DNA of 64,000 nt, from assembly GCA_030407315.1 (NCBI GenBank), contig JALQPE010001969.1, forward strand, positions 1-64,000, given 5' to 3'. This document shows, one piece after another, positions 719 through 23,544 of the stretch; position 1 is the stretch's first letter, and the number at the start of each line of letters is the position of its first letter. This DNA is from Asparagopsis taxiformis (Eukaryota > Rhodophyta > Florideophyceae > Bonnemaisoniales > Bonnemaisoniaceae). Position numbers and translations under genes: made by a program. Under the pieces are notes generated by a model, which was not told the origin of the DNA, ran no database searches, and worked only from the letters and a program-made list of their open reading frames with translations.

Positions 719-732
719 CACAGGATAAGCAA
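719..732 (+). repeat. Left terminal inverted repeat of element A1
   Basis: CACAGGATAAGCAA, the exact complement of 23531-23544. The same sequence begins element A3 at 62353. Confidence 0.8.
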
Positions 733-1431
733 TTTTTTGAAAAACCAGTAAATTTATGGTCTGGACCATTAGAAATTAGTGGAATGACAAACCATCAAAA
801 AATCCCAGAAATTACCGGCGCCGTGCCATAGATAAGTAGTGGAAATACCGTAAAGAATATAGTGGAATGAAACTGCGCCGTGGGAGTGGTATAAGCAGCG
901 TGACATGGTGGAATTTTCCACTACTGTACGGAAAAATAACAATGGAAAGGACAAAGACACGTCGCGTTGGTCATGACGGTGACCGGAGGTGGCATATTCC
1001 ACGATTTTTATAATTTTCATGGTGGAATGACGGAACGGGGGAGCCATATGTATGACAGTACCATGTTGGACTCGAACCATGAACTTGGATGGTTACGCCG
1101 GTCTGTAGTACGGATGGCATTCGTAGCAGTGTAGTGAGGCTAGCGTGATGGACTGGTTCCAACGCGCCATACCCTTCGATGGCGTCACGTTTTGGGCGTC
1201 CATGAGGAATATGATATCATATGGAAGAGGCGAAATGCAAAGTGTATGACGTTAACTAGCTAATCTCGATATGGCCATTGTTGTACCATAGGTAGGGTAT
1301 GGTGGAAAGAGTAGACAATTGTACTTGAGTTTAGTTTTTCTAGTATTACTGCGTACAGAATGGAACCATCTATGTTGATTTCTAGCACAGATACTACGGC
1401 ATAGTTATTATCGCGGTCGCTAAAATTTTTA
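733..1431. other. Left subterminal region of element A, no gene seen
   Basis: About 700 bases without a convincing gene. The stretch recurs almost base for base at 62367-63067 in element A3, so it belongs to the element. It is rich in short GTGGAAT-like words and is probably transposase-binding subterminal DNA plus the promoter of the following genes. I see no long palindrome or tandem array in it. Confidence 0.5.
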
Positions 1432-1656
1432 ATGAAGTCACTCCCCGCATGCACAGGATTGACCGGAATAGTGAGTTTCGCCCTGGCTTTAAGCGTGACT
1501 AGTATCTTGAACGCAGTAGTAGTGTGTTTGACAACTTGTATGGCAGTAGGGAACATGGTAGTGATTTCGTATCATACTATAAAAATGAAAAAATTGGACG
1601 TTACAGACATGGGTGAAGTAGTATCTGGTGAAGAAGTTGACGAAGACTTGTCCTGA
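1432..1656 (+). CDS. Small hydrophobic protein with acidic tail, function unknown
   Basis: This is an ATG-to-TGA frame of 74 codons, conserved at 63068-63292. Residues 13-45 are strongly hydrophobic and could form one or two membrane segments; the last 20 residues are acidic (GEEVDEDLS end). It ends 49 bases before the next gene. I do not recognise it. Its conservation between the two copies proves little, because the copies are nearly identical throughout. It could instead be leader sequence of the Tudor-like gene. Confidence 0.3.
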   Translation: MKSLPACTGLTGIVSFALALSVTSILNAVVVCLTTCMAVGNMVVISYHTIKMKKLDVTDMGEVVSGEEVDEDLS

Positions 1657-1705
1657 ACAAAATTGCAGATAGTGCGTTGTAGTATCTTTATTTCGTGGAG
1701 GAACT

Positions 1706-3543: not shown

Positions 3544-4152
3544 TTAGAGAAATACCAAGCTCGTCATCCTCCTGTAGAGGGACGCAATCAGGATTGGAAA
3601 TGCGCCTGTCTGCCGAGTTTTCAAAGGAAGTTCGGTTTGTACGATGCTTGAATCGAAACGTACAGACTCGTATTCTTCAGCAGTGAGATTTCTCTTCTTT
3701 CGGATGATTCCGAACAGGCAATCACCTCCCATGAGGTAGTCCCGCAGCTCTAGATGTCCCCATGAAACTCGCAAAGGGAATCCATCTTTCCCGAACTGAG
3801 GTGTAGGTAACTTGCTGAGGGCCGCATTGAATAAACCTTGGAGACATATTGCTATCCGATAACAAGCTTGAATGGCATGGGGCTCATGACAAAGCATCTC
3901 CAGTTGTGTGCATTGGCAGAAACTGCATAACAATATCATAGCTAAAGTAAGAAAAGAGAATGAACATACAGCCAATTTCTCCACTGGATTCTGCGCAGTT
4001 GTAATGTTTCCATTAACGATACCGCCGCTTACCTGAACTTTGTAAGTAACCTGAACGTGAAGCTCGGGACGACTGAGAATGAAATTTGAGAAGGTAGAAT
4101 CATTTCTTGAATACACTTCTAGAGCGTCTTCTCCTGTTCCGTAAGCTTTCAA
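3544..4152 (-). CDS. Hypothetical protein, element A, minus strand
   Basis: This is a 202-codon open frame on the minus strand, convergent with the Tudor-like gene and 143 bases from its stop. No ATG lies at its 5' end (the frame opens at a TTG), so it is probably the last part of a longer or spliced gene that includes the next one or two minus-strand frames. The middle (about 60-85) is hydrophobic and cysteine-rich; a GTATGT donor-like site lies at the start of that stretch, so part of it may be intronic, although splicing the obvious pairs breaks the frame. I do not recognise a family. Confidence 0.35.
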   Translation of the reverse strand: MKAYGTGEDALEVYSRNDSTFSNFILSRPELHVQVTYKVQVSGGIVNGNITTAQNPVEKLAVCSFSFLTLAMILLCSFCQCTQLEMLCHEPHAIQACYRIAICLQGLFNAALSKLPTPQFGKDGFPLRVSWGHLELRDYLMGGDCLFGIIRKKRNLTAEEYESVRFDSSIVQTELPLKTRQTGAFPILIASLYRRMTSLVFL

Positions 4153-4164
4153 CGTTGTCGGAAT

Positions 4165-4710
4165 TCAGTCAAGTGGACACATGTCCGACGTGGACACATC
4201 AGAGTCAAGTGGAACAGCAATAGTTGCCTTCATATCTCGGTGGATGAGGAAGAATGCTTGCTTGACCAATTCCATTTTCATTTGCTTACGGGAACTGTTG
4301 AAGAACTGGGTGAGCTGCCGTAGAGCAGAGGTAATGATCGGAATGGACTGTATATCCGACGGTGACAGGCTGGGCATACCGGAAGACGAAGAGGAGGACG
4401 TAGATGCACGGCGTGCTTCTCCTTTCGAACCAGACAGTCGCCGACGCTTTGAAGATCCAACCTGCAAACTCGTGGACTGTTCTATGTTGCGTTCCGCCTC
4501 CGTGGGCATCGAAATATCCATGGCATGGAAAAGAGCGCGCTGCGAAATGTGCAGCCAAGATGGTTTATCGATGGGCACAATTGTTGCATTGCGTAGTGCA
4601 TAATCTCTTGAGATAGTATTGCTGTTCAAGTCCTCTTCTTCGCCGGGGTCCAGGATGCCGGCATTCCTGGTGGCCGAGTCCTTCCATCGTACAATTCTGT
4701 CATTCGCCAT
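4165..4710 (-). CDS. Hypothetical nuclear protein, element A, minus strand
   Basis: The open frame runs from an ATG at 4710 (MANDRIVRWKD) to a stop at 4165. The same frame stays open upstream to 4854, but that part contains a good splice donor on the minus strand (GAG|GTAAGA at about 4805) and an acceptor-like GGAACAG at about 4725, so it may be an intron. The protein has a serine-rich tract preceded by a KRRR basic patch, typical of nuclear proteins, and a helical C-terminal half. It lies 12 bases from the next minus-strand frame. It may be the middle exon of one gene spanning 5214 to 3544. Family unknown. Confidence 0.4.
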   Translation of the reverse strand: MANDRIVRWKDSATRNAGILDPGEEEDLNSNTISRDYALRNATIVPIDKPSWLHISQRALFHAMDISMPTEAERNIEQSTSLQVGSSKRRRLSGSKGEARRASTSSSSSSGMPSLSPSDIQSIPIITSALRQLTQFFNSSRKQMKMELVKQAFFLIHRDMKATIAVPLDSDVSTSDMCPLD

Positions 4711-4881
4711 CGAAATAAATGCTGTTCCGACAATAGAGCGTTTTAAGAATATATGCCGTTTCCCAACCGCCGTGCCAATTAGAGATTTCTTGGATTGTCT
4801 TACCTCTGCATTAGAACTGGAAGTATGCGAAAACGACAATGCAGCAAGTAGCAATGTTGTGCAGGACTTCTCTTGCGGGGT

Positions 4882-6226: not shown

Positions 6227-6584
6227 AATTGTGAATCGAGAACGAGTCTTGCTACTATTATTTCTCTACTATCTCCTTGCCATTCGCGCTCGTTGAAGTT
6301 AGTTTACTGGCACAGAGTGCAAGCGACTTACGCACCCCTTCCAAACTAGTACAAACCCCTACTCTAATCCCTGCAATACAACTCTGGCTTCTGTCGCCAT
6401 CCTCACGTCCCCTCGCGAGATATCGGCGGCGTGTCGGTTCCAGAATTTCCGATTTCGAATTTATTGGCGCCGCGTGGACTTTGGAGGGCGTGGACTTCCA
6501 GTCCGCCCTTTGATCGTCGAAAACTTTCCCCACTCATCTTTTTCCATTCTCCCTGCTCTCCCTTTTCTCTTCACCTCACAAGTA

Positions 6585-9500
6585 ATGGCGGAAGTACGAC
6601 GGCGACATGGGCTCGTCGTAACACGCAGCGAAAATGGACCAACAGAACCGCATGATTTGTACGGAGACGGAACAATTCTCTGGGTGGATCCGGCGCGCGT
6701 TGTTTCAATTCCAGCGATTGAAGGGGCTGCCACTCCTGCCTCTGATATTCCCCGCGGAACGCACCTAAACTTCGATGCTCTCTATCTGTACGGTACCATA
6801 GCGGAAAACGGGGACGTTACCCTGGTTGGAGGTATGGACGTGTGCGAAGAGGTATTGTCACGCCCCCGAACCAAGACTTCAAGGTATTTACTCCGCATGT
6901 GCTATGAGTCTATTTCCACGAAACCGCATACGCTTGCCTTGATTCTGTATCACATTCTGGAGAGCGAAAGGACAATTCCGTTCTACGAAAGTGTGTCAAT
7001 TGTAGCTTACATGCGGGACTGCTGGCATAATAGAGAGAAGGACGAAGATAACGTTCCACTCGAAGAACGTTCACTCTCAGCGTTCCGAAGGGCTGTGGGC
7101 AGTCTGTACAGATTCAATCTACCATCTCTAGAAGCCATCGTAATCGTTGACAGGTGGTTTTCATATGCGTACCACCGCCACACGTTTAACATTGTGCAAT
7201 CAGTGCGGAACTTCACGAGTACTGGTGATGATGGCAATACAGAGCTTGATACTAGAGTATGGGATCTGTTTCTTACCAGCTGTGGGATGCAGGATTTGTC
7301 GGTATCGTTCTTTATTCCGGTGTACATCAATGAGCGTGATGAGCCAAGGGGTGTAGAAATTTCAACGAAAACCTCCCAGAGTCCTCGTCCCTCAGGTCCA
7401 GTGTTCTATGAATACCAAAACCATAACACACAGGAAAGGACAGCTATTGGACGAGATGCGTACTCCAGGCAAACTCTGGCTTGTCAATTCTTTGTTTCAC
7501 ACGTTCAGGAAAGGGCTACAGATCATGGTAACTGGGCAACTCCAAGATATTCCCCGTCTTTCCGGAAAGTTGTATTTCTCATGGGATTGATTCAGATGGA
7601 TCGAGACTGGAAGTTGCGAGTAGAAACGCGCCCACGACAACGGACAAGAACCAGGTCTGCGGCTAGATTGACAGCGCTAATCAAAAAGGACAGTCCTTTT
7701 ACGGCACAGCGTCTGGGATATGGGGTTCATCAGGTTCTGGCAGCATGGGATGAGTTGGCAAAATCCTTGGGGTCAGGCGGTGCAGAAGAGCTCCTACAAC
7801 CTTACCTTCTTTACGACCAGAGACTGTTTACGTACCACGTCCTGGACTCGGAAAATAGGGGCTTTTCACCGCTTCGAGAGCTGAAGACCTTGTTGCATGG
7901 CAGAGGAGCTGTTCGAAGAGTGCAACACTCGGCAAGCATTTCAAGTGCTGCTGTCCATCGTACGCTGCTGCAAGACGCTCAGATGCGCCTCTGTGCAAAG
8001 TCATTCTGGGAACACTTAATGGCAATATGTCGCAATGACAAATTGTTCGACCTATCTGTCTCGGCTCCGCAAGATATACCGTTCATACAGAGCTTCCAGC
8101 CGTCCCCCGGTTCCCCGGTTTCCGGGAGGTTCACGACTATTCCGGCACTGGCGATGGTGGAAAGGCAGCTCACAGCGTTCAGCCTCACAGAAGAGCCGCA
8201 ATCAACGCCCGACCCAAATGAGGAGCTGTTCAGAGAAATGGAGACGACAGCTTCTCCAGTGCGGGAATCTTCGGTAACCCGACAGGTGTCGGAAGCCGTG
8301 GCCGCGAACCCGAATAAGCGTAGGCGTCTAGAGGTCAGTACGATCGGTGCAGCAAGCTCAGGGGCTAACCCGGCTAGCAGCAGCACCGGTCCAAACGAAG
8401 CTGATGTGAACTCCATGCGGGTCGAAGAGGAAGTGTTAATTCCTGCGGAACTGGAGAACATGAAAGGATGTTTCCTACATACATTCAACTGTAGTTTCCG
8501 AGACCTTCTGAAAAACTACGACGCCGTTGACAATCCTGGTAAGCCGCAAATCCGGGAAGGTGCTCAGTTGGTCCTCACTGACCCGCCGTACAATACTAGG
8601 CGTATGTCCGGCAGAGGAAACTCTGGTTACGATGTCCTCCGTCAGGAAGAAATCGAAGACACGGTAGCTGAAATTTCCAAGGTGACGCGCAAGGGTGGTC
8701 ATGTTCTCATATTCACATCTGCTGCTCTGTTCTACAATTGGGTTTACGAGCTCCGCAAAGTGAAGTACTCTGCCGGCTATCCTATGTTTGCCGTTGATTC
8801 GCAGCCTATTGTGTGTACTCGGAGTCCGACACATTTCACATCCCCCCGTATCGTATCACGACAAGTTTGTTGAATATGGTGGAGTTGGTCGTACATGCCA
8901 CCAAGCTCGGCAAGGGGAGAGAAGGCTGGGGGATGGTTAATTACCGAAATGCCGGATACATACCTTCTAGATTCAAGGCTTGGACAAATGTCATCGACAA
9001 CATCCCGCGGATCACTGCGTCGGAGACGGTGAAATATATGGACAAGGACAAGAAGAAGGTTACGTTGCGCCCCGAGCAGAAGACCGTCGCTCTCATGCAA
9101 GAGCTCATTGGGCGTTTCTCAAACCAGGGCGACCTGGTTGTTGACATGTTTGCTGGAACTTTCTCCACTGCTGTTGCATGCCTGACAATGCACCATGGTC
9201 AGTACAGGAGGTTTGTCGGGTGTGAGAAGTTCAAGGATTGCTACGAACTGTCTCTTCCTAGAGTCAACGTCGCATTTCTCCACCAGGTCTCTATTGGGAA
9301 CTTTGCCCAGCAGTCCACGACTGCCCTACAGCAGCTGGCTTCTGCTCGTCTGGGAACTTCGGAAGAGAGTTCATCATTGAAGACAACCTCAAAAGTGCCC
9401 ATTTCAACCAAACTTCCGCCCCACCTCATCAGCTTTCTTACTGGCATCTGGTGCATTCCGGACCAGCACAAGGAGTTGACAGACCAACCCATTGATAAGT

Positions 9501-10069
9501 GGCCACAATCGCTGCTGGGTTTGTTGTCTACCGTGGATATTAAAACCCTGCTGTCAATAGACGCGATGGCACACAATGTATACGTCGCAGCGTCAACGAT
9601 TCCTTCGGCTGGTGACGGTCTGTTTGCAAGAGTGGATATTGATCCTGGAGATATCGTAGGGTACTATTTCGGGTCTGTGGTTTACAAGGATTTGTACAAG
9701 GCGAAGTTGAAGACTTTCGGTACTGGACCTACTTCCTTCTCGATTGAGCGTTTCCAGAAGTACGCTGTTCAAATTAAGGATGCAAATGTGAAATGTCTGA
9801 TGCCATCCACGTCTGCAAGTCCAATCTTCATTGTTCCATTCGAGTATTGTGCGGCATCGAAAATCAACGACCCAACGTTTGTGGACCCAGCGGAGGGAAC
9901 TGAGCGTCCGTCGCGTTCTGCTAATGTTAGTTTCTCTTCCCCCATACAAGAAGTTCTTGATGAGACCTCTGTATCAACCTATCAAGTTGTATGCGTCACT
10001 GCCAATGTGCCCATTTCAGCTGGCTCAGAGTTATTCATCGAGTACGGACACGAATACTTTTCCGTATAA
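6585..10069 (+). CDS. Beta-class DNA amino-methyltransferase fused to SET domain (element A)
   Basis: I start at the ATG at 6585 (AAGTAATGGCG), after a pyrimidine-rich leader. The frame gives about 1160 residues if one lesion is discounted: an extra GT in a GTGTGT run near 8812 shifts the frame between motif IV and the target-recognition region. Residues 1-600 form an element-specific N-terminal region also seen, diverged, in the gene at 27351. Motif IV is DPPYN at about 666-670; motif I follows as DMFAGTF at about 853. Motif IV before motif I marks a beta-class amino-methyltransferase (as in CcrM), making N6-methyladenine or N4-methylcytosine. The C-terminal 160 residues resemble a SET domain: GDGLFA, YYFGSVVY, a KINDP segment where classical SET domains have NHxC, and a final FIEYGHE. 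The pairing suggests a protein that methylates DNA and a protein lysine. Palindromes lie on both sides. The frameshift may be real decay or an assembly error. Confidence 0.85.
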
Positions 10070-10339: not shown

Positions 10340-10344
10340 AGTAT

Positions 10345-11215: not shown

Positions 11216-11235
11216 CGGGTCAGCTCAAGATGCGC

Positions 11236-11358: not shown

Positions 11359-11574
11359 TGCCCATCCTCCATTCTCTCCATGACCGTTCAATATGAGTTC
11401 TGATTGATTAGGACGCAACCGGCGGATATTATGCGCATTAGTTGTTATATTGCGCTGTCCCACGGTCCTGTTTGGACAACCTTCAAGTGCATACCTTACA
11501 CGACCATCCACTTCTTCTTTCTCGGCTCCTACTCATCTGCTACTCTCTCTGCTTCTTCTGCACCTGAAAAGCAA

Positions 11575-11863
11575 TCCCGATCGAGGACTTCCCCCTACGA
11601 GACGCACTGTTCCGCTCTCTCTCTCTCTCTCTTTCTCTCTTTCACTCCCTACACCAATCTCTCCACCTCTACCTACCTCTCTCTGCCAACCTTTCAGGGA
11701 TCCTCTCTACCACTTCATTGCCAATCTCTCTGGCACTATCCACCACACTCTCCCTCCCACTGTCTCTCTAAAGCGACAGTCTATCTCTCCTCAACCATCT
11801 CTATTCTCCTATCCCCCTCTCTTTCTCACTACACTTCCGCGCTACCCACTCGGCAAAAACAAC
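11575..11863 (+). promoter_or_regulatory. Pyrimidine-rich leader of the ParB-like gene
   Basis: The plus strand is dominated by CT tracts (CTCTCTCTCTCTCTTTCTCTC near 11620) up to the ATG at 11864. The downstream frame remains open through it, but the encoded sequence is low-complexity serine/leucine/proline, so I take it as an untranslated leader or promoter. A shorter pyrimidine-rich leader precedes the methyltransferase-SET gene. Confidence 0.5.
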
Positions 11864-14254
11864 ATGCCTCCGCGTACTATCCCTCTGTCGACCACCAGTG
11901 CAGCTCGAGAGCTCACCATCCCTGCCATGTCCCGCACTGGCACCTCGCTTTCGAACTACCTGTTCAGGGAAACGAAACTTCCGATCGCTGACATTCATGT
12001 CACGGAAGAAACATCCCGCGAGGTTGATGTCTCTCATGTTGAAGTGCTGTTCCAGAAGATGGTTCTCGAAGGCTTTCAGACCTCTTCTGTGGGCTCCATG
12101 ACTGTGGTAAATCTACCATTTGGGCCCGATGGAACACGCTACTACATAGCGGACGGTCTTCATCGTCGTGGAGCTCTGGTGCGGGCGAAGGAGGAACAGG
12201 TTGAGCGTTTAGCTTCCGTTGTGGACAACGTTCCTGTCCAGGAAGCCTTGAGGCCGGATGGTGCGCCAATGACTATGGAGGATGTCCTTTACCTCAGTCA
12301 GCGGTTGAATGAGCTTGTTCACACTGTTTTGCCAACCACCATCCGGGATCGTATACATGCTATCATTAGCATATACAATTGCAACCTCAAGTACGCTCAA
12401 CCTGGGGATAGGAATCTGGCCAACATGACGGCTTCGCAGCTGTCTAATTGGTTCTTCCAACGTCATTTTTCTGGCATCCTCCGGAAGAGTACCGTGACGT
12501 CCATCGTCAATGTAGCTATGAATATGCGACGTTCGCCTCGCACGTACGCAGCCTACAAGATGGCTTCCGGGAGGAAGGAGAACGAGGTCGGCATCAGCCT
12601 TCTGGTCCTAAAAGACACAGCATTCACGAAGGCTGAAGACCGTGCTAGTGAATTGATGGTCAAATGCCTTCACTACCGGTCTGTGCTGCTGATGCATTCG
12701 TTTGGACGTATCCCAGGTCTCCAGCTCCGTACATATCTCAATTACGTTAGAGATTTCTACGAGGTCATCCGTGAACTAGCACCCATGGTTGACCTCAGTA
12801 CGGAGCAATTGGCAGACCTGGAAGACCTTGAACCGGATGGAAAGGAAATGATCCCGACCTGGAAATCCGTGTTCAAGCGTATGGTTCAGTACGAGGAGGA
12901 GCCGGTGCCGAAGAGAACGGAGAACCAAGATCTTCGTATAGAAGATTTCCGTTCGGTCATCCAGCATCGTTTCAATGTTGCACCGAAGCAACAGAATCCT
13001 CCTCGTACTGAGCCGTTGGACTCTGCTGCGAATACCACTCCCGCCAATGACGTGGTAATGGAGGAGGGTGCGAGGGCTTCAACGAGTGCTCCTCCTGCAC
13101 CTGTCCCTCCGCCAGGATCACCATCGCAAGTGCCTGGCAAGGATCGTTCTCCGACACAGTTCGGAGAAACTATCATCGAGCCTCTCCCTGTCCCCCTTCC
13201 CTCTGAGCCCCTCCCAGAGGATGAAACTGGTCCCTTGGACATTTCTGCTGCTGTTCCACCTGAACAAACGCAGCAGAATGCTCCCGGGTCCTCAGGCAAT
13301 CCCACCACCCCTCCTGCCAAACCCACCACCCCTCCTGCCAATCCTACCACCCCTCCTGCCAATCCCACCACCCCTTCTCCTCATCCCTCTCCTGCTCAGT
13401 CTCCCATGGCTGTCTCAACACCCTCCGCTGCCCGGGCTCCATCTTCTCCCCCCAAGTCTCCTATGGCTGTGTCACCACCCTCCCCTGCTCCAGTTCCCCC
13501 CACTCCTATGGGGGAACAGCAGAACCCCGAAACTGCGGAAGTCTCTGAACCGCTGGGGGGTGGTGCGGAGTATCCCGTTTCGCGTGCCATTCGCATTCCG
13601 GCCGACGAAACTACTCCACGCCCCTTCCCTTGCTCTCTTGGACCGCACTGTCGCTTTCCTGGCTCTGCCGCTGTGCACAAATGCACAGCGTGCAACTCTA
13701 AGCCAGTTCACAACCTGTGCGACTATCCCCGCGTCCACCATCTCATCCCCATCAAGTACCTGAATCAAGGTGAGCGAGACATGGTCTTCGTCTGCTCCCG
13801 TCGGTGCTATGATGGTCGTCAACCCAATGACCCCCCTTCTTGGACCCCTCCTGCAGGGGTCACGTTACAAGAAGCGTGGGATGGGGATGAGTTCAATCCT
13901 TTTCGCAAAGGAGGCTCAACGACCGAGTCGGTGGAACAGGACAAGGGTGAAGCGGGTGTCAAGGACAAGAGGAGCACCGTAGGAGAGAAGACTCCCATAT
14001 CTCTGGGCAAGGTCAAGAAGCCCTCCAAGAGTACCCGCCGAGGGGAAAAGAGGAAAAGGGACGATACCTTTAGTCCGCTTCCGGCCCGTGTTACTCGGTC
14101 GAAGACCAGAAGTGCTGCCGTTGCAGAGCAGCTCATCGCTCTTGGCAGCACTTCTTCCCCTCCTTCCTCCCTTCCGCTTCCTGGTCAACCCCCGTCTTCG
14201 GGTGAGAAGGAGCGTGACAATGAAGGTGAGGAGCAGAGAACCAGATGTACGTGA
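11864..14254 (+). CDS. ParB/Srx-like domain protein with cysteine-rich zinc finger
   Basis: The start is the ATG at 11864 (AACAACATGCC), giving 796 uninterrupted residues. About residues 35-110 resemble the ParB N-terminal/sulfiredoxin-like fold, with YYIADGLHRRGALVRAKEE matching the G-H-R-R box of that family. Bacterial ParB proteins are DNA-binding CTPase clamps; other family members are nucleases. A helical region follows (about 110-370), then a proline-rich linker with TTPPANP repeats (about 480-560), and a cysteine/histidine cluster of treble-clef or PHD-like type (CTACNSKPVHNLC; about 590-650). The basic C-terminus (RRGEKRKRDD) looks like a nuclear localisation signal. The oxygenase-like frame starts 28 bases downstream with no palindrome between, so the two may be one transcription unit or a split fusion. 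The role in the element is unknown. Confidence 0.75.
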   Translation: MPPRTIPLSTTSAARELTIPAMSRTGTSLSNYLFRETKLPIADIHVTEETSREVDVSHVEVLFQKMVLEGFQTSSVGSMTVVNLPFGPDGTRYYIADGLHRRGALVRAKEEQVERLASVVDNVPVQEALRPDGAPMTMEDVLYLSQRLNELVHTVLPTTIRDRIHAIISIYNCNLKYAQPGDRNLANMTASQLSNWFFQRHFSGILRKSTVTSIVNVAMNMRRSPRTYAAYKMASGRKENEVGISLLVLKDTAFTKAEDRASELMVKCLHYRSVLLMHSFGRIPGLQLRTYLNYVRDFYEVIRELAPMVDLSTEQLADLEDLEPDGKEMIPTWKSVFKRMVQYEEEPVPKRTENQDLRIEDFRSVIQHRFNVAPKQQNPPRTEPLDSAANTTPANDVVMEEGARASTSAPPAPVPPPGSPSQVPGKDRSPTQFGETIIEPLPVPLPSEPLPEDETGPLDISAAVPPEQTQQNAPGSSGNPTTPPAKPTTPPANPTTPPANPTTPSPHPSPAQSPMAVSTPSAARAPSSPPKSPMAVSPPSPAPVPPTPMGEQQNPETAEVSEPLGGGAEYPVSRAIRIPADETTPRPFPCSLGPHCRFPGSAAVHKCTACNSKPVHNLCDYPRVHHLIPIKYLNQGERDMVFVCSRRCYDGRQPNDPPSWTPPAGVTLQEAWDGDEFNPFRKGGSTTESVEQDKGEAGVKDKRSTVGEKTPISLGKVKKPSKSTRRGEKRKRDDTFSPLPARVTRSKTRSAAVAEQLIALGSTSSPPSSLPLPGQPPSSGEKERDNEGEEQRTRCT
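13303..13385 (+). repeat. 21-bp tandem repeats coding TTPPANP
   Basis: About four copies of a CCCACCACCCCTCCTGCCAA-like unit inside the ParB-like gene. The unit length keeps the frame and encodes a proline-rich linker. Confidence 0.85.
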
Positions 14255-14282
14255 CTCTACTGTACGCAGAGATACTTAGCCG

Positions 14283-15595
14283 ATGTTCGATGAGCGTCCA
14301 TCTCCCGACTCGGTATCGCTATGCGGCCATCAGCTGAAGATCCGTACATCAGAGATAGGATGCGATCGACAAGGCTTACGAGAGTGAGGAGGAGGAAGAA
14401 ACCCCCACAAAATCGAAGGTGACTTCGAAGGGGTTTCTGGTCCACCGGTACGAGGACGAACAGCCGAGTCCACCTCCCCACCTCCTCGAGAATATTTCCG
14501 CGGCCGAAGCTGAATCGTTCGTCCGTTCAGTTTCGAGCCTACTTCATCCTGAACACCGCTCTGGGTTCTACTTGACGGAAGGGGAGGTGGAGGAACTGAG
14601 GGAGGATATTGACTCCATGGCTGGTTCTTCGTCCATCGAGAGGGCTGTGTATTTCGAGCGGGCAAGGGCTAGTATTGATTCTGATGGATATGTTGTCCTG
14701 GAGAACATACTAGGAGCTAAGGAAGTGCGGTCTAGTATCCACGACCTTCTGGCAGCCTTTGCGAAGAAGTTCTCGGAAACGAGGAAGGTGCGTGGATTTC
14801 GATTCTCAATTCCGGTTCTACAGCCAAGGATGCAGAAGGGGGCCGTCTCGGCAGCGGTACATGACCCCCTGCAAGGCCGTTGTCGAAGACCTGGACACGC
14901 TTGCGTCTGGTCCAATAGCTCACGATAAGGTCTCTGTGGATGTTCTGCTCGCTATTATAGCAGAAAAGCTCCACTTAGAAGATTCCGTTTCGTCATTGAA
15001 GGGATTCAAGGAAGGCTCCAAGCTCAGGTTCGGTAGAACAGGTCTTCGGATGCTGCTCACAGGGTCGGGCTGTGATCGTCAGATACCTCATCTGGACTTC
15101 ACATACCCCGGTCCACCGCCAGGGGAACCCAACCGATACTACGGTAAACCTGCACCAGATCCTGACTATGCATTCATTGCAACTGGTGCAGTGGGTTCCC
15201 CGATTCTGGTACGACCTCGCAGCCATACCTTCCTCAACTCCCCACGCAAGGCCTTCCTGGACGTCTGGCCCCACCTCGTTCCCAAGTTGGTCTGGATACC
15301 TCCGTTCTCTGTTTTTGTCTCTCGTGGAGACTTGGAACATGCAGGTCCAGGATGGCAGGACCACGATTTCGTGAAGACCAGGCTTTCCAACACTGGAATG
15401 CCGTATGGTCACCATATTCGAGTCCACACAATGGCTGCGCGTGTCTCCTCCGAGCTCGTCAACGACCTAGTTTACGCGCCAGGGCTGGGTGACGACCCCA
15501 ATGCTCTGCCGGAGCCCTACGATTTCGATCACGACTACGTGTCGGATAGTGATAAGGAAGAGGAAAGTAGCGAAGAGTATATTACAGTTGAATAG
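14283..15595 (+). pseudogene. 2OG-Fe(II) oxygenase-like protein, frameshifted
   Basis: Open frames cover 14283-15595 but need shifts near 14345-14358 and near 14855 (in GGGCCGTCTCGGCAGCGG), so this copy appears broken. I place the start at the ATG at 14283 (MFDERPSPDS), 28 bases after the ParB-like stop. The 3' part shows a double-stranded beta-helix oxygenase pattern: an HxD iron motif (PHLDF, 15089-15097), then FIATGAVGSPILVRPRSH, a distal histidine (GDLEHAGPGW, 15338-15340), and a basic RVH that could bind 2-oxoglutarate. This fits phytanoyl-CoA/prolyl-hydroxylase-like enzymes; substrates in that superfamily include methylated nucleobases and lysines, but nothing here tells which. The C-terminus is acidic. 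A 50-base 3' remnant survives in copy A2 at 49787-49836. Confidence 0.65.
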
Positions 15596-16840: not shown

Positions 16841-17055
16841 GTTCCATGAATGATTTCTGTTTATGGGTAGTATAGTCGTATGTTCAACTGAGCAAGGTCA
16901 TAGTTAAACTATTAGACTGTAACGGTCGACTTATTCATGTTCTCCCTTTCTACAGCTTTACATCTGTGTGTTTCGTTTCTATGCTCACTACAGCAAGGCC
17001 TACACGCGGTCCCTCACACACATATCAGAGCCTGCATATTGTCTGTCATCGAGAC

Positions 17056-20000
17056 ATGGCAAGACCGAGAAAGTCTAGGACTGGCCTACGACTACGATAC
17101 AACAATGTATACCCTGGTCGTAATCGGGCTCGGCGTTCGACTACCAGAACAGTTTCTGACCCTTTCTCCGTCCATCACATGGGCTGGAGACCAATGCAAA
17201 ACCCTCTTACTCCCCCACAAATAGACCATGACAGCACTTTGAACATTCCCCAGAATCCAAATGCTATCAACCACCGGCTCCCAGATGCAACACCCCCTTC
17301 CTCTCCTGTCCTGGATACGTCTACAACTGGGAACAATAGCTTGCATTCTATTGCTCTGGTACCCATGGATACCACCGTCTCTATGGAGTACGCCAAAAGC
17401 GAAGAGGGAAACACCCTGCCACCTCCAGCAGTTGAAAACCTATCCACCATTCCCGACCATTGTGATATGATACTTCCTTCTAGGAGTGAACCTGCTTCTG
17501 CTGTTGCGACAGTTCCTACTGAATTCCATCACGATAGTTCTGACGAACCCGATGATGTATTCTCAGAACATGATACCGTGTCGAATGATAAAGACCTGCT
17601 ACTACAGGAGGAGGCAGAAGCGAAGCTCCTAATCTCTTCTCCCTTTATCATGAACACGTCCAATCCAGACAAAGCTCGCAATTACATGACACAATGGACT
17701 ACGCTGTATACTGTCGCAAAGCTGACAGGCTCCACAAAAAGTACTGCCGCTAGCTTGCAGGAAGATCGTGTTTTGTTCGATTTCGCGAGAAAAGGCTCAA
17801 CGAATAAACATGTTCAGCAAGGTCTGCCTCATTATTCGACAATAGTGCGTAAGGTGAGACCGTGGCTATTCTACAATGCATGGTTGCGTTCAGAAACCGT
17901 TTATTTTCCTGTAAACGTAGAGCGCAGTGCAGCCCGTGTAGCTTCCTCCGCAATTCTACGAAGAAGCCGCGTCGAACGAGCAACAACAGGCCAATCAGCA
18001 CCTGTACTTATCGTTCCACCAAGCGAATATGCACGAGCAGACATTACTACGCCACAAATATTCGACCTTGCGTGGCGTGATAACACACAATTGGATGCTT
18101 CCGACTCGGATGAGTTACTAAGTTTCCATGGTAATGTGTGTACATCCAGGATAGGAAAATTCAGAGAGTACTCTCTGAAAGGACAAAACTATACTCTAAG
18201 GGCAGAAGATAAGGATGGCTCTCCGGTTCCTGCTTTCGGGGGTAGTATTGTGGAGCTTCGCGTGATATCTGGGCGGCACGCCTCTCCTCTAGATCCTACT
18301 CTCAGTTCCCTTTTCCAACAGGAATCACTATCTTCCAGCCATGAGTCGTTCAAAGCTCTCACATCTTCTTCGTGGATTAACTCTGGTGCCGCATTTCATA
18401 GCAGGCTTTCGGTCTCCCCGCATTCATATGGGTCCGCCTTCATCCTTCAGAAAGAGTCGTTCCGGGAATATGCTCGGCCGGGTGATCACCTGACAGTTTT
18501 ATCACCCAGTCCTGAGTGCAACCCTACTCAAAATTGTGGTATACAGTTCTTCATTGGGCTTGTCGTCAGCTCTCCCGGACCGCCAGGCCCATCACAAAAA
18601 CTGCTCTTTCTCGTCAACTCTGAAGGGCATTACAAAGTTGTCGGCGGAACTCGTGCAATCAATAATGTCAAGTTATTGAAACCAGGCACGAGCTCCAGCC
18701 CCTTTCATCCTACACATCTCCGTGGGGTTCTCAGCTGCGGTACCATATACTACGTCTATCCATTTCTTTTATACTGCGATGACTTCAATGAAGCCTCTGG
18801 TAAGAAAGGGAGTGCTGGAGGATGCTATATGCTCCCAATGGGTCTTCCGCTGGACTGTCGCCGGAACAGTTCTGCTGTGCGCGTTATCGGTGTCACAGGT
18901 CCTGGTGTTAGTACAAACCATATCCTTCGACATATCTCTAGAGACATTATTCAAGGATGTACGTCGGGGTTTCGTGATGTCGATCCAGACGGCAATGAAT
19001 GTCTAATTTTCCTGGACTTTATTGGTTTCGTATCGGATTATCCTGCCTGTTCTCATGTGCTGGATGTCATGGGGCACAACGCAGACTGCCCATGCCATTT
19101 GTGTTTCTTTGTAAGAGGGGGGAAATATGGGAAGAACTCGCAGTTTGGCTACGACACCCGTTTACATTCGAGCTCTGATACACACTTTCGCACATCCGAG
19201 CGAACAGCTGCTGTTCAGTCATCGGAAAGTTCTGCAAACATCTTGAAGTATCTGGGTTTGAGAACAGTGCAAAATATCACAGACACTCCATTGCATCTCA
19301 TTGAAAGACTACTTCATGAAGCTAGGTCCAAAGGGCTGGTTCCAACCGGGACACCACTCGGAAACGATGGTCTACGAATCCCTGTCGTACCTGCTATTCT
19401 GGACCCATACCGTTCGACGTTTGTTGGAATTGACCATCTCCTCCACGGACTGGCAAAGGATGCTCTGGACAATGCTTTTTCAAGCTTGCCTAATGATGGT
19501 GTGAGAAGGCTGGCTGACAGGTTCATGGTGGATGCCCTCCTTGTATTGGGTCTCGCAAATCAGAACAAGATATATAACTTCAACGCAGGTGAAACTCATA
19601 CAATGGGAATCTCGGACAGATTTGCAGTTCTCCTCGTCGCCGAACACTGCTTCAGGTCTTCTCTGAAATTCCAATCGCAGACTACAAGGTCATCCGAAGG
19701 TAGCGGTTCAAGGTCACTCCAGGCTTCTGAAGAGCAACGCCATCTGTCTCTCGAACTTGTTCGTCTCCTGTCCTCTATATCTGCAGCTACATACTTCCTA
19801 CCACGAAAAAATATCGACGGTTCTGAGGCAGTACAGAGAGCTACAGGGAATTCTGCGCACAACAGTCTCCGTCGTCTGCAGCAGCTATCGAAAGAATATG
19901 CTACTCTAGTGGATGACCTGCTCAAGACTGTTCCTACAAGACAGCGGAGCACAGCGGTCTCGAAGAAACGGAAGATGCAGACAGAAGGTATAGTAACGAA

Positions 20001-21117
20001 TGATAATGACCACATTGAGATGGAAAACAAGACTGCTGGATTCCGGGCAAGGAAGATTCTTGACAATAAGCCAAACTTGCACCGTCTCATTAAGGCATTT
20101 GAACACACTGTTCCTCTGCTCGGACACGCTCGCCAGGTAGCTGAGCTATCATTCGAAGCAACACATCAACAAATGAAACGAGGTCTAGAGCATTCCGGAG
20201 GTGCTGACAGACAGTTGGATGCTATGTTAGCGGCACTCGGAAACTATTGGAAAGGAAGCCTCCATCTTGCTTTGAAAAGTTTCTCCAATTCTACTCCAGC
20301 ATCTGTGGAGAGAGAACGTTCTAAACGGTTTCTCCTTCGTGTTCTATTCGGACGGGAGCACTGTAAATCCATGGAGAACCTCCCGGCTAGTACGCTGCAT
20401 GACCTCTGTCAAGAACCCCTTCTCGAACATTTGAATAGGTCTTCTTTACCATTCTTCTCTTCTCCATATTCATATTACTCGTGGACAGGAGTTCCCTCTT
20501 CATTACCACAGCAGGATTTTTCCTGTGGGCAGAATTCGGATGCAGTCATGCTTCGTGGAAAACCTTGCAAGGGAGCACGTCTCAGTTCTGCCCACCCTGC
20601 CTTTGCAGCTTCGCCCTCTGCTGCGTCTCGGGACTTTTCAAAGCCACAAGAAATAGCTTCTGGCTGTGTAGTACAAGCTTGCTACTCAGCTTCCCCGTCT
20701 TCTAGAATTCTACAGAAGACCTGTTCACCTTCTTTTTGGGCTGTTACCACTGTATTTGACCTGACTATTGATGGAAACATTGCTTCACCTGGAAACGTTT
20801 GCATAGACGAATCTCACCAGGAAAACCTGTCTCCACCACACGCTACTGTTCTTCCAGTTATCAAGCAGAAGTCCTCCCCCACTACGTTTGCTCCGAACAC
20901 CGATTCCGGCTCCTGGTTTCTCCCTCTCATTTCAGGGGTTCGTAAGGTTGGTCTCCTCCACAATTGTAGCCCTTCATTATGTTCTGTGGAGCAACTTCGA
21001 ATGGAGGAATTACGCATGGAGGTCCTTCGTTTATGGATGGTGGTTCCTTCTCTATTTTTGCAAGAGCAGATGGATATCCGCCAAGGACTGCATGATACTC
21101 TAGGGTCTAGTACATAA
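17056..21117 (+). CDS. Element A transposase, CACTA/Plavaka-like DDE type
   Basis: The chosen ATG at 17056 opens MARPRKSRTGLRLR, an AT-hook-like basic start, giving 1353 residues; another ATG lies in frame at 16981. The order of motifs matches CACTA/Plavaka (Tnp2-like) transposases: LLYCDDFNE near residue 575 (first catalytic Asp), SDYPACSH near 661 followed by a CPCHLC knuckle at 678-683, then LDPYRSTFVGIDHLLHGLAK, the region of the third acidic residue that in this family reads PVExLHxxLLG, and a late SFEATHQQMKRGLEHS segment like the ETFEAFN box. It should cut and join the CACAGG ends. The first 250 residues are acidic and disordered. An inverted copy lies at 45164-49210. Of the large genes in element A, this one and the Tudor-like and ParB-like genes are uninterrupted. 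Confidence 0.8.
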   Translation: MARPRKSRTGLRLRYNNVYPGRNRARRSTTRTVSDPFSVHHMGWRPMQNPLTPPQIDHDSTLNIPQNPNAINHRLPDATPPSSPVLDTSTTGNNSLHSIALVPMDTTVSMEYAKSEEGNTLPPPAVENLSTIPDHCDMILPSRSEPASAVATVPTEFHHDSSDEPDDVFSEHDTVSNDKDLLLQEEAEAKLLISSPFIMNTSNPDKARNYMTQWTTLYTVAKLTGSTKSTAASLQEDRVLFDFARKGSTNKHVQQGLPHYSTIVRKVRPWLFYNAWLRSETVYFPVNVERSAARVASSAILRRSRVERATTGQSAPVLIVPPSEYARADITTPQIFDLAWRDNTQLDASDSDELLSFHGNVCTSRIGKFREYSLKGQNYTLRAEDKDGSPVPAFGGSIVELRVISGRHASPLDPTLSSLFQQESLSSSHESFKALTSSSWINSGAAFHSRLSVSPHSYGSAFILQKESFREYARPGDHLTVLSPSPECNPTQNCGIQFFIGLVVSSPGPPGPSQKLLFLVNSEGHYKVVGGTRAINNVKLLKPGTSSSPFHPTHLRGVLSCGTIYYVYPFLLYCDDFNEASGKKGSAGGCYMLPMGLPLDCRRNSSAVRVIGVTGPGVSTNHILRHISRDIIQGCTSGFRDVDPDGNECLIFLDFIGFVSDYPACSHVLDVMGHNADCPCHLCFFVRGGKYGKNSQFGYDTRLHSSSDTHFRTSERTAAVQSSESSANILKYLGLRTVQNITDTPLHLIERLLHEARSKGLVPTGTPLGNDGLRIPVVPAILDPYRSTFVGIDHLLHGLAKDALDNAFSSLPNDGVRRLADRFMVDALLVLGLANQNKIYNFNAGETHTMGISDRFAVLLVAEHCFRSSLKFQSQTTRSSEGSGSRSLQASEEQRHLSLELVRLLSSISAATYFLPRKNIDGSEAVQRATGNSAHNSLRRLQQLSKEYATLVDDLLKTVPTRQRSTAVSKKRKMQTEGIVTNDNDHIEMENKTAGFRARKILDNKPNLHRLIKAFEHTVPLLGHARQVAELSFEATHQQMKRGLEHSGGADRQLDAMLAALGNYWKGSLHLALKSFSNSTPASVERERSKRFLLRVLFGREHCKSMENLPASTLHDLCQEPLLEHLNRSSLPFFSSPYSYYSWTGVPSSLPQQDFSCGQNSDAVMLRGKPCKGARLSSAHPAFAASPSAASRDFSKPQEIASGCVVQACYSASPSSRILQKTCSPSFWAVTTVFDLTIDGNIASPGNVCIDESHQENLSPPHATVLPVIKQKSSPTTFAPNTDSGSWFLPLISGVRKVGLLHNCSPSLCSVEQLRMEELRMEVLRLWMVVPSLFLQEQMDIRQGLHDTLGSST

Positions 21118-21475: not shown

Positions 21476-21537
21476 TCATTGGCTCCTCAGCCTGCAATAC
21501 ACGTTTCCGCTCACACGCGTGCAGCTCCACGCCAGCT

Positions 21538-21577
21538 GTAATGAAATAGAACACTACCTAGTGTTCTATTTCATTAC
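21538..21577. repeat. 40-bp near-perfect palindrome
   Basis: GTAATGAAATAGAACACTA, two bases, then the exact complement. It is conserved in copy A2 at 44680-44719. Confidence 0.93.
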
Positions 21578-21581
21578 GTTT

Positions 21582-21642
21582 TCATGACGAGTCCATCTCG
21601 AGTCCATGACGTGTCCATGACGTGTTCATAGATCATCGATGA
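21582..21642 (+). promoter_or_regulatory. CATGACG-repeat cluster upstream of TATA-like box
   Basis: Several CATGACG and TCCATGACGTG words occur within 60 bases, resembling paired CRE/bZIP-type sites. The block recurs inverted at about 44630-44680. It lies about 90 bases upstream of the TATA-like box. Confidence 0.4.
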
Positions 21643-21727
21643 TTTGTTTCTGATTTGTCAGTACGAAAAGCGCGCGCTTTCTCACTACGCAAGTGAAATA
21701 CGCGACCTCTGGGCTCACTCTGCAGCA

Positions 21728-21737
21728 GTATTTAAGG
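21728..21737 (+). promoter_or_regulatory. TATA-like box (GTATTTAAGG)
   Basis: An AT core in GC-rich surroundings, conserved in copy A2 at 44519-44529. A long stem-loop begins about 55 bases downstream, close to where a transcript would start. Confidence 0.4.
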
Positions 21738-21790
21738 CTTGCGTCACGCTAAGCGCCATCGTCATCGCCTGTCGCATAGAGCACACCACC

Positions 21791-21864
21791 TACGCAGGAT
21801 GGGGCGGCGGAGTGCAACCACATCCCTGCGGATGTGATTGTGCCCCGCCGCCTCCATCCTACGA
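21791..21864 (+). ncRNA. Possible structured RNA: 74-nt stem-loop
   Basis: Arms of about 33 bp (CGCAGGATGGGGCGGCGG ... CCGCCGCCTCCATCCTACG) around a short loop. Copy A2 (44394-44466) differs at several arm positions yet still folds into the same stem. It could be a structured leader, a small-RNA precursor, or simply a palindromic DNA site. Confidence 0.4.
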
Positions 21865-22069
21865 TAAGGTTTTCCAGCTCATTTAGTCTTTTAGCCATTC
21901 CTCCCATTGTCTTTTTCTGCGGTTCTTCGTTGTTCTTCTGCTAACATACTTTTCTGCCTTTCCTACTTTCTGTTTGGTCTTTCTCCAGGGCTACTGTCAT
22001 TACTACGTTTTCTCACTTCTAATCGAGCTTTTGGCATACCGTTTCCAGCACTAACCACTGTGTCATCCA

Positions 22070-23356
22070 CTTCTTTCCATCTCTGTGCCAGCAGAAGTTT
22101 CTGGGTTCTCTACAATCCGCTTACTCAAGCTCTGGCTCCACTATCAACGGTATGTTCTCTCCCTTCTAGTCATGCTTCTAGCGTTGATGAAATTACATTC
22201 CTAGCACTAACCATTGATTCATCTATTCTTTTCCTTCCAGGTGCCAACAGAAATTTCTGGCTTCCCCTCACCTCTCTTTTCATGCCTATATGTATTTGTA
22301 GTTACTTTATGTAGAGCTGGTGTTTTGCCGTTTAGTATCTGCCATGGTGGCATAGTTCATAGTTCCGTAGTGCAGTGTACAGATGATCTTCATGTCGTTA
22401 AACTTTTGGCGTTAGCTGCCCATTTACCTATTCCATATCCACTACACCATATCGTAAATCTTGCGTACCCGGCACTGGCTGCAACCTAGTCTAATTCATC
22501 GTCCCTATGCCGATTTCCATTCTACCTAGATATCGTTTCAGTCAGACCTATCCGTCCTGCAGTTTCTCCGCAAAAGTGCGATGTGCCGCCCATTCTACCT
22601 TTCAGTTTCTACCCAGAGCACCCACCGGTGCAACCACTCTACCCAGTGGACATGGTCCACGCCCACTCGACGGTACAACCACTCTACCCAGTGGACATGG
22701 ACCACGCCCACCCGACGTTACAAATACTCTACCCAGTGAACATGGTCCACGCCAACCCGACGGTACAACCACTACATCCAGTGGAAGTGAACCGTACCCA
22801 TTACAGTGCTCCACGGTGGAATAATACCAGTGTCACGAGCAGGTGTTATAATAGAATATATCCGGGCTTTACACAGTACTGTAGTTTGGAAACTAACCGC
22901 GCTTTGCCTTGGGCCGTACATGCCCAGTCAATGGTCTCTTTCCAGATTATCGTTTGGCCAGTTCCACAAGTCAGCTTGGTCACGTCCCATAAGCAAAAAG
23001 TCACCTACTCTGGAATTGTTCCAATGAATACAATAATTATAGTTTGGTCACCGTCCATTCAGCGAGTGCTGCTTACGCCTGGTTTCAGACACCGGACCGT
23101 CACGGTGTGCCCATTATATTTTATAGTTTATTTCTACGAATCGCTCTGCACCTTCCACCACATATCGCAGTCACGGTGCACCCCATATCTAACTATACCC
23201 ATATACAGTACTGGTTCCATTCCAACAGTCCGTGCCTGCGTGACTTGGCCCGTTCTAGTCAACCCGCCGTCCTGCTCATATATGGACGTGGTTCATTTCC
23301 ATCCCTACGTGTCCTTCCGTACATGGTTCAGCCATCACCTCACGGCCACACCATAG
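22070..23356 (+). CDS. Short spliced gene of unknown function (3' part)
   Basis: The plus strand shows tandem exon-like units, PAEVSGFSTIRLLKLW and VPTEISGFPSPLFS, each preceded by CACTAAC, a pyrimidine tract and CAG. One clean intron is 22150-22240. The downstream 257-codon frame (22583-23356) is open to the element's right subterminal region, encodes three to four YPVDMVHAH-type repeats from 45-bp DNA repeats, and ends with aromatic-rich sequence. In copy A2 this frame is interrupted by a TGG-to-TGA change. The exon borders other than the intron given are not certain. The DNA may serve mainly as subterminal transposase-binding sites, with coding a by-product. Confidence 0.35.
22150..22240 (+). 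other. Spliceosomal intron, 91 bp
   Basis: Donor GTATGT, branch-like CACTAAC, pyrimidine tract and acceptor TTCCTTCCAG. The same 91-bp structure is kept in copy A2 at 44005-44095 on the minus strand. Confidence 0.6.
22626..22800 (+). repeat. 45-bp tandem repeats, about 3.9 units
   Basis: Units start CGGTACAACCACTCTACCCA and begin at 22626, 22671, 22716 and 22761. Copy A2 has only about two units (about 43543-43620). Confidence 0.92.
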
Positions 23357-23530
23357 TTCTGCCTGGTTCCTGCCTACTGTAAAACAAAATCGCCGTGCTG
23401 GTCTCAGCCCATGATTTTTTACATTTTTTTCGATGGGCCTTATCCAAACCTTGGGGATGGGCGTTCCGCTAAAATATGGTGACTAGTTCTACTGTACAAT
23501 ACGGCATTTTCCATGGAATATTCTCTATTT

Positions 23531-23544
23531 TTGCTTATCCTGTG
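23531..23544 (-). repeat. Right terminal inverted repeat of element A1
   Basis: TTGCTTATCCTGTG, the exact complement of 719-732. The A2 copy at 42792 has one change (GATAACC for GATAAGC). Confidence 0.8.

What the first reader, a model, noticed from the sequence alone, without database searches (positions are those of the whole stretch)
719..23544. A 22.8-kb DNA transposon carrying a chromatin-modifying gene set
Between 14-bp inverted ends lie a Tudor-like protein, a DNA methyltransferase-SET fusion, a ParB-like protein with a zinc finger, an iron/2-oxoglutarate oxygenase-like protein and a CACTA/Plavaka-like transposase. Seen: the ends, the ORFs and the motifs. Known: CACTA-group elements usually carry one or two proteins. 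Inferred: the cargo marks or unmarks DNA and histones at the element, as anti-silencing or as part of transposition. I know of no described element with this combination.
Basis: partly seen in the sequence, partly recalled or inferred. Interest (0 to 1): 0.88.

Follow-up and report, generated by a model that had tools for sequence, protein, structure and literature searches.

The report
Giant transposon family carrying chromatin-modifying genes
A roughly 22-kilobase jumping gene in what is probably a mushroom-forming fungus regularly carries genes for writing, and perhaps reading and erasing, chemical marks on DNA and histones, so it may manage its own chromatin state.

Summary
The element is real. 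Window 719-23544 has exact 14-bp inverted ends and a 2-bp target duplication. The end sequence occurs 225 times in the host genome, its reversed control never. Three subfamilies carry the same genes at fixed spacing wherever partners were scored together: a Tudor-like protein, a DNA-methyltransferase-SET fusion and a ParB/zinc-finger/oxygenase-like protein, plus the transposase in two subfamilies. Strands differ between subfamilies, and the two regions tested look under purifying selection. Corrections: the ParB-like and oxygenase-like proteins are one polypeptide; this copy's two chromatin genes are frame-broken; Plavaka membership of this transposase is not shown; 'Tudor' and 'oxygenase' rest on motifs. 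The window also holds two copies of a second element pairing a true Plavaka transposase with a related methyltransferase-SET protein (66 matches, 55 in frames of at least 1084 aa). PF01555 gave 150 scored matches. Best explanation: self-marking against silencing, inferred and untested. Transposons with TET or SET genes are known; this combination was not found in six literature searches. New variant of a known kind.

The parts
717..718 (.). target-site duplication, CA (left)
   Evidence: equals 23545-23546
719..732 (+). left terminal inverted repeat CACAGGATAAGCAA
1673..3400 (+). 575-aa 'Tudor-like' protein (stop-to-stop frame); conserved component, fold unproved
   Evidence: 76 scored matches in genome (32 A, 29 A', 15 C), constant spacing to MTase-SET where paired; no profile support
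3544..4881 (-). open frames of 206 and 238 aa, unknown protein, possibly two exons
6303..10069 (+). MTase-SET gene in two overlapping frames (6303-8873 and 8798-10069): N-terminal region, beta-class amino-MTase (DPPY, then FAGT motif) and SET domain; frame-broken in this copy
11408..15595 (+). ParB-like / zinc-finger-like / oxygenase-like gene; one polypeptide in P0065, split here
14228..14379 (.). 152-bp insertion in the ParB-oxygenase gene, absent from four other copies compared
16876..21117 (+). transposase (stop-to-stop frame), CMC-like by conserved acidic motifs, not classed by Pfam
22626..22773 (.). 45-bp tandem repeat, 3.3 copies, near right end
23531..23544 (-). right terminal inverted repeat
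23545..23546 (.). target-site duplication, CA (right)
27300..39278 (+). element B1 (left limit not found): MTase-SET gene 27300-30554 with one in-frame stop, frames of unknown function 31116-33247, Plavaka-type transposase 34020-36685 on the minus strand
42792..49837 (-). A2: 3' part of an A element (equivalent of A1 15547-23544; end sequence with one mismatch), joined to B2 at 49837
49838..62352 (-). element B2, joined to the oxygenase-like end of A2 (one junction seen); MTase-SET frame 59388-62429 cut by A3; Plavaka transposase 52412-55079 (+)
62353..64000 (+). A3: another A element, inserted in the MTase-SET gene of B2 (one junction seen); matches A1 on to contig position 69864 only

Best explanation
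An autonomous cut-and-paste DNA transposon of about 22 kb (A family), with a core of four genes. SHOWN: inverted ends, 2-bp target duplication, near-identical and nested copies, a recurring gene set in three subfamilies, and sequence conservation of the two cargo regions tested. INFERRED: the MTase-SET protein deposits an amino-methyl mark on the element's DNA (6mA the likelier, since motif IV is DPPY and the best solved matches are DpnA, CcrM and RsrI) and a histone-lysine mark on the same chromatin. The ParB-like domain would load and spread the second protein on element DNA, so that its oxygenase-like domain can remove host silencing marks. The Tudor-like protein would read methylated tails. 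Net effect: the element keeps itself expressed and mobile in a host that silences repeats.
For: Ends, TSD and insertions. Gene pairing: oxygenase-like near MTase-SET in A 26 of 43, A' 28 of 34, C 11 of 22; every pair found has the matching subfamily, strand and spacing. Tudor-like near MTase-SET in A 17 of 32, A' 15 of 29, C 10 of 15, likewise. Transposase with oxygenase-like gene within 6 kb in A 16 of 22 and A' 10 of 11. Four A' contigs (C134, C1726, C2078, C2263) show all four genes in long open frames. Selection: oxygenase region dN/dS 0.12-0.16 in three comparisons; MTase-SET pN 0.14 against saturated pS 0.77. MTase profile hits DpnA, CcrM, RsrI; SET part hits KMT2, EZH2 and KMT5A. A second element type (B, Plavaka) carries a related MTase-SET protein: 66 scored matches, 55 in frames of 1084 aa or more. 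Precedent for transposon-borne chromatin enzymes: PMC12730594.
Against: No expression, methylation or histone data. The MTase-SET frame is broken in this copy and in the 28 other A loci aligned, though these were picked by their match to the broken frame; 7 of 43 A matches begin where open copies do. If the break is real the protein is not needed in cis. The oxygenase and Tudor names have no profile support, and both structure predictions failed (pLDDT 29 and 43). No oxygenase-like or ParB-like frame was recognised in B1 or B2, so that protein is not general. Many rows are unpaired, and one interval with facing ends, C1000, showed only MTase-SET. Selection tests used single sequences with synonymous sites near saturation.
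Confidence: 0.5

Rival explanations
1. The marks control transposition itself rather than expression: amino-methylation separates newly replicated (hemimethylated) from old element DNA, or labels the ends for the transposase, as Dam methylation does for bacterial IS10 (recalled). The SET and ParB parts help assemble the transposition complex.
For: The best solved matches of the MTase are bacterial adenine MTases. Cargo and transposase are tied together in A and A'.
Against: SET and oxygenase-like domains are not explained by this. No methylation-site pattern at the ends was tested.
Confidence: 0.2
2. Self-limitation or competition: the element deposits repressive marks on its own or rival copies and so limits copy number. 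Bdelloid N4CMT, a PF01555 enzyme, is reported to mark transposons as part of silencing (PMC8885841).
For: N4CMT abstract and passages. EZH2 entries among SET matches. Several families coexist in one genome.
Against: Many near-identical copies argue against effective self-repression. KMT2C entries rank above EZH2.
Confidence: 0.12
3. Passive cargo: host genes trapped between the ends by chance, with no role for the element.
For: Large transposons do pick up genes (general knowledge).
Against: The same gene set in three diverged subfamilies, despite different strand arrangements, and purifying selection.
Confidence: 0.04
4. The gene set descends from a virus or bacterial invader (ParB, PF01555 MTase and multidomain proteins occur in phages and conjugative elements: the 'polyvalent proteins' of PMC5512222) and was joined to a eukaryotic transposase. 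This is a rival about origin, not about function.
For: PHROG hits for ParB and MTase. PMC5512222 passages mention a ParB-adenine-methylase fusion.
Against: No viral structural or replication gene was recognised in the frames scanned with Pfam. SET is of eukaryotic character.
Confidence: 0.14

Closest known systems
TET/JBP-carrying fungal DNA transposons (Kyakuja, Zisupton, EnSpm, Plavaka and others; Kojima 2025, PMC12730594; abstract, sections 3.2 and 4.2 and passages read)
   Same: Fungal DNA transposons with an added DNA-modifying oxygenase, proposed to escape silencing; PlavakaA has 2-bp TSDs.
   Different: Here the added proteins are a PF01555 amino-MTase fused to SET, a ParB-oxygenase-like fusion and a Tudor-like protein. 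End sequences differ (CACAGG, against TGT or CATCA for Plavaka). A TET/JBP relation of the oxygenase-like part is not shown.
SET-carrying transposons HarbingerS and oomycete MuDR (as cited in PMC12730594, passage read)
   Same: Transposon-borne SET gene.
   Different: Other superfamilies; no DNA MTase fusion mentioned in the passage seen.
Bdelloid N4CMT (PMC8885841; abstract and passages read)
   Same: PF01555 beta-class amino-MTase in a eukaryote, fused to a chromatin domain and linked to transposons.
   Different: N4CMT is a host gene with a chromodomain; here the enzyme is transposon-borne, fused to SET and multicopy. That paper states that the bdelloid enzyme has no eukaryotic homologs.
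CACTA/EnSpm and Plavaka (CMC) elements
   Same: Inverted ends beginning CAC, 2-bp TSD, transposase with a similar order of conserved acidic and Cys motifs (by eye).
   Different: Transposase A scores below cut-off with PF02992 and PF18759; cargo unlike any described in the parts of papers read.
Giant Plavaka repeats of Amoebidium (PMC11244446; passages read)
   Same: Large gene-bearing repeats flanked by Plavaka transposases.
   Different: The cargo named in the passages is tyrosine recombinases.

Membership tests
CMC / CACTA (EnSpm) DNA transposon | terminal inverted repeats beginning CACTA/CACTG or a similar CAC (recalled) | tested here: met
   CACAGG...CCTGTG, exact 14 bp; it is CACAG, not CACTA or CACTG
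CMC / CACTA (EnSpm) DNA transposon | short target-site duplication, 2-3 bp | tested here: met
   matching dinucleotide at 4 of 5 loci (A1 CA; C86 TG, C635 TC, C1000 TG); no match at the C384/C98 locus, seen on two contigs
CMC / CACTA (EnSpm) DNA transposon | transposase homologous to Transposase_21 / TNPD | tested here: inconclusive
   PF02992 E 0.022, below cut-off, in 1 of 8 aligned sequences; none in the window's own protein
Plavaka (A element) | PF18759 transposase domain | tested here: not met
   no hit for the window protein; best 0.19 in 1 of 8 aligned sequences; hhalign to the B transposase not significant (template of 2 near-identical sequences)
Plavaka (A element) | termini TGT..ACA or CATCA..TGATG (PMC12730594) | tested here: not met
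   CACAGG..CCTGTG
Plavaka (B element) | PF18759 transposase domain | tested here: met
   E 6.6e-17, over cut-off; 96 scored matches of that protein in the genome
beta-class DNA amino-methyltransferase | PF01555, motif IV DPPY before the SAM motif | tested here: met
   activity and base (6mA or 4mC) not testable here
SET histone lysine methyltransferase | PF00856 profile and conserved motifs | tested here: met
   9e-6 (A) and 8.7e-7 (B), over cut-off; the usual NHS motif is replaced by an INDP...N pattern (motif names recalled)
ParB/Srx superfamily | ParB N-terminal domain profile | tested here: met
   PHROG 1033, 7.8e-5 in P0065 and 0.0052 in the window protein; PHROG 3264, 0.063; no Pfam, NCBIfam or PDB-sequence hit
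2OG-Fe(II) oxygenase | HxD...H...R in a cupin fold (recalled) | tested here: inconclusive
   residues invariant in the 4 sequences aligned, from 3 subfamilies; no profile or structure support
TET/JBP dioxygenase | sequence or fold match to TET/JBP | tested here: inconclusive
   no Pfam or PDB-sequence match; fold prediction failed
Tudor/Agenet | profile match | tested here: not met
   no Tudor hit in Pfam, NCBIfam, PHROGs or PDB sequences

The most novel reading that the evidence does not exclude
These elements carry a self-contained mobile chromatin kit: a writer of both a DNA amino-methyl mark and a histone mark, an eraser and a reader. The genome has been colonised by many such families, so a bacterial-type DNA mark supplied by transposons is a real, abundant layer of this host's epigenome. 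It would be a third route to DNA amino-methylation in fungi, besides MT-A70 and MetB.
Probability: 0.3. Interest if true: 0.92.

Novelty: new variant of a known kind. Interest (0 to 1): 0.78.

Why it matters
If the enzymes are active, a transposon supplies both DNA and histone marks from one protein and probably removes others with a second. How mobile DNA escapes silencing, and whether 6mA or 4mC exists in such fungi, then become directly testable. The 2026 review of fungal DNA methylation (PMC13297926, passages seen) names MT-A70 and MetB as 6mA writers and mentions transposon-encoded TET/JBP; no PF01555-SET enzyme appeared in the passages seen. Three subfamilies, two transposase types and many copies make a system in which the work of the cargo can be told from that of the transposase.

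Tried and rejected
Structure prediction of the ParB-oxygenase protein P0065 (pLDDT 29) and of the transposase P0066 (43) was too poor to use; Foldseek on the latter gave 0 matches at E <= 0.001. Profile-profile comparison of transposase A with the B Plavaka transposase was not significant. An intron explanation for the broken MTase-SET frame was considered and dropped: the open copy is colinear there and the stretch aligns with homologs. A search for the left end of B1 by inverted match to its right end found none. 'Passive cargo' was rejected on recurrence and selection. ParB itself was not searched in the genome; the query was the oxygenase-like part.

Counting limits. Only the best candidates are scored per search: MTase-SET 99 of 3083, oxygenase-like 134 of 2991, transposase A 33 of 2002, Tudor-like 76 of 456, B MTase-SET 66 of 3710, Plavaka 96 of 2075, PF01555 150 of 2605. 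Counts are lower bounds, yet inflated where alleles are both assembled (C384/C98 share both flanks). In one search, 132 of 138 oxygenase rows were used (the last 6, all partial, dropped); without a partner were 17 of 43 A, 6 of 34 A' and 11 of 22 C rows. In one search, 100 of the 225 end sequences were listed, and 46 of 99 MTase and 67 of 138 oxygenase rows (contigs up to C1725) were entered; besides the regular distances it gave longer ones (for example C384 21.8 kb, C635 21.2 kb, C1017 19.7 kb) that I read as nested inserts without checking. In one search unpaired rows were 15 A, 14 A' and 5 C. In one search two pieces in C75 were merged (33 entries from 34 rows).

Literature. Answered searches bearing on this combination: in one open-access library; nothing found. 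Timed out: searches; papers (Iyer 2014, recalled, not read); the bdelloid paper was reached later.
Full report
WHAT IS THERE. The window lies in contig C1844 of a 141-Mb assembly of an unnamed organism, probably an agaricomycete fungus (inferred from the Plavaka elements, not tested). At 719-732 and 23531-23544 stand exact inverted copies of CACAGGATAAGCAA, flanked on both sides by CA. The 14-mer occurs 96 + 129 times in the genome; read backwards it occurs 0 times. In the eight end loci fetched from that list, nine right ends match A1 from the first base of the end sequence inward, and none of their flanks matched A1's flanks. A second copy, C86:15616-37391 (21.8 kb), has TSD TG/TG and contains the Tudor-like gene, MTase-SET sequence (200 of 200 sampled bases identical to A1; this gene is missing from the capped list), the oxygenase-like gene and the transposase. 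Longer intervals with facing ends are C635 (TC/TC, 35.7 kb; MTase-SET, oxygenase-like gene and transposase scored inside) and C1000 (TG/TG, 25.8 kb; only MTase-SET scored inside). One locus seen on two contigs (C384, C98) has no matching dinucleotides.

NESTING. B2 is joined to the oxygenase-like end of A2, and A3 sits in the MTase-SET gene of B2; one junction of each is visible. B1 gives the empty site for A3: the match between B1 and B2 stops exactly at the A3 end (27581 and 62352). A3 matches A1 only to A1 position 8233, and its far end is not on the contig.

GENE SET. Four genes recur. (1) A 575-aa 'Tudor-like' protein, 76 scored matches, 95-100, 81-84 and 71 percent identical in three subfamilies called here A, A' and C. 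(2) The MTase-SET protein, 99 scored matches at 93-100, 85-87 and 75 percent (query is its C-terminal 423 aa). (3) The ParB/zinc-finger/oxygenase-like protein, searched by its oxygenase-like part: 138 matches, mostly 93-100, 71-78 and 59 percent, 37 of them in open frames over 1200 aa. (4) The transposase, 34 matches, 93-100 percent in A and 87-88 percent in A'.

Pairing is strict where both genes were scored near each other. Oxygenase-like gene within 15 kb of MTase-SET: A 26 of 43, all same strand, 5.0-6.0 kb downstream; A' 28 of 34, all same strand, 4.1-5.4 kb upstream; C 11 of 22, all opposite strand, 7.1-8.0 kb; subfamilies never mixed. Tudor-like near MTase-SET: A 17 of 32 (same strand), A' 15 of 29 and C 10 of 15 (opposite strand), gaps nearly constant within each subfamily, no mixing. 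Transposase within 6 kb of the oxygenase-like gene: A 16 of 22 (same strand), A' 10 of 11 (opposite strand); with MTase-SET as well: 6 and 6. Unpaired rows may reflect unscored partners, contig ends or real loss. Distances to end sequences: A left end 8.08-8.13 kb upstream of the MTase frame in 8 of 9 cases within 10 kb; A' end 6.82-6.84 kb downstream in 6 of 7 cases; C end 8.8-8.9 kb from the oxygenase-like gene in 3 of 3 (partial lists). From this I deduce the same order of genes between left and right end in A and A', with different strands; for C the type of its ends was not read.

STATE OF THIS COPY. In A1 it is split by a 152-bp insertion and small frame changes. The MTase-SET frame is broken in A1 and in the 28 other A loci aligned (29 of 29 placed; L034 not placed), but open in C1956 and in the A' copy C1726. 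Those loci were fetched as the best matches to the broken frame, so the proportion is biased; 7 of 43 A matches begin at residue 12, as the open copies do. The difference lies in a single-base run, so an assembly error is possible. If it is real, copies with a broken MTase-SET gene have amplified, which would mean the protein acts in trans. Intact sets exist: in contigs C134, C1726, C2078 and C2263 all four genes show long open frames.

SELECTION. Between subfamilies the oxygenase-like region gives dN/dS of 0.12, 0.16 and 0.15 (pS 0.61-0.71). The MTase-SET C-terminal half, A against C, gives pN 0.14 with pS 0.77, saturated. These are Nei-Gojobori values on one sequence per subfamily. They indicate conservation of protein function through the divergence of the subfamilies.

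DOMAINS. MTase: PF01555 over cut-off. The profile of 39 sequences finds DpnA (2.5e-14), CcrM and RsrI, and weakly a DNA cytosine-N4 methyltransferase (0.0052); the SET part finds KMT2C, EZH2 and KMT5A. Motif IV is DPPYN and precedes the SAM motif, the permuted order that PMC8885841 describes for subtype beta. ParB: PHROG 1033, 7.8e-5. Oxygenase-like: invariant HLD, H and R in four sequences of three subfamilies, no profile support. Tudor: none. Transposase: conserved acidic motifs in an 8-sequence alignment, sub-threshold hits to Transposase_21 (0.022) and Plavaka (0.19) in single relatives; CMC-like is the best guess, membership unproved.

RELATIVES. Among about 5.8 billion proteins, the B-type MTase-SET query (residues 400-1013) found 63; only four carry a name, two of them from Pyropia yezoensis, a red alga. 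The ParB query found 2 and the transposase query 6. In this genome element B pairs a true Plavaka transposase with MTase-SET in convergent order, 4.82-4.86 kb apart, on all 9 contigs where both were scored. The PF01555 search scored 150 matches of 2605 candidates, all over cut-off, in open frames of several recurrent lengths (943, 1106, 1161, 1186 aa and others), so more families probably exist than those studied here. Its control rang in 11 of 14 genomes, all 11 prokaryotes; the other three are not named in the output.

INTERPRETATION. Recurrence of the gene set, selection, and the presence of MTase-SET with two transposase types make a role for the element likely. Self-marking against silencing is the most economical role for a DNA and histone writer plus a DNA-spreading, oxygenase-like protein, and it matches the role proposed for TET-carrying transposons (PMC12730594). 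It is not shown here. Licensing of transposition and self-limitation remain open.

NOVELTY. Known: TET/JBP-carrying Plavaka, EnSpm, Kyakuja and Zisupton elements, and SET-carrying Harbinger and MuDR elements (PMC12730594, abstract, two sections and passages). Known: a captured PF01555 enzyme in bdelloids that marks transposons (PMC8885841, abstract and passages). Not found in my searches: a transposon encoding a PF01555-SET fusion, or one with ParB-oxygenase and Tudor-like partners. I therefore call it a new variant of a known kind, with high interest.

Noticed in passing
window 27300-39278 and 49838-62352: Two copies of a second transposon (B) with a PF18759 Plavaka transposase and an MTase-SET gene; 66 scored matches of that MTase-SET protein in the genome, 55 in frames of 1084 aa or more. 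This may be the more active family.
   Followed up: partly
G000 whole genome: 150 scored PF01555 matches of 2605 candidates, in several further open-frame classes (943, 1106, 1161, 1186 aa), not assigned to transposases.
   Followed up: no
window 42792-64000, on to contig position 69864: Nested insertions A3 in B2 in A2, each interrupting a chromatin-enzyme gene of the other element type.
   Followed up: partly
C86:15616 and C730:16194: Both have the same 20-base flank and an outward-facing end 555 bases away, yet the oxygenase-like gene inside is A-type in C86 and A'-type in C730. Different alleles, recombination between elements or misassembly: unexplained.
   Followed up: no
P0060, P0061: Relatives of the MTase in Pyropia yezoensis, on chromosome-size contigs; P0061 also aligns over the start of the SET region. 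Whether they are transposon-borne was not checked.
   Followed up: no
window 3544-4881, minus strand: Open frames of an unknown protein between the Tudor-like and MTase-SET genes.
   Followed up: no
window 5441-5562, 10220-10336, 11234-11359, 15822-15939, 16701-16832: Short related repeats of about 120 bp matching in both orientations, between or near the genes of A1, perhaps small inverted-repeat elements or regulatory sites.
   Followed up: no
C384 and C98: Same two flanks in opposite orientation on two contigs: the assembly holds both alleles of some loci, so copy counts are inflated.
   Followed up: partly
window 39238-39957: Integrase core (PF00665, below cut-off) of a retrotransposon right at the end of B1.
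   Followed up: no
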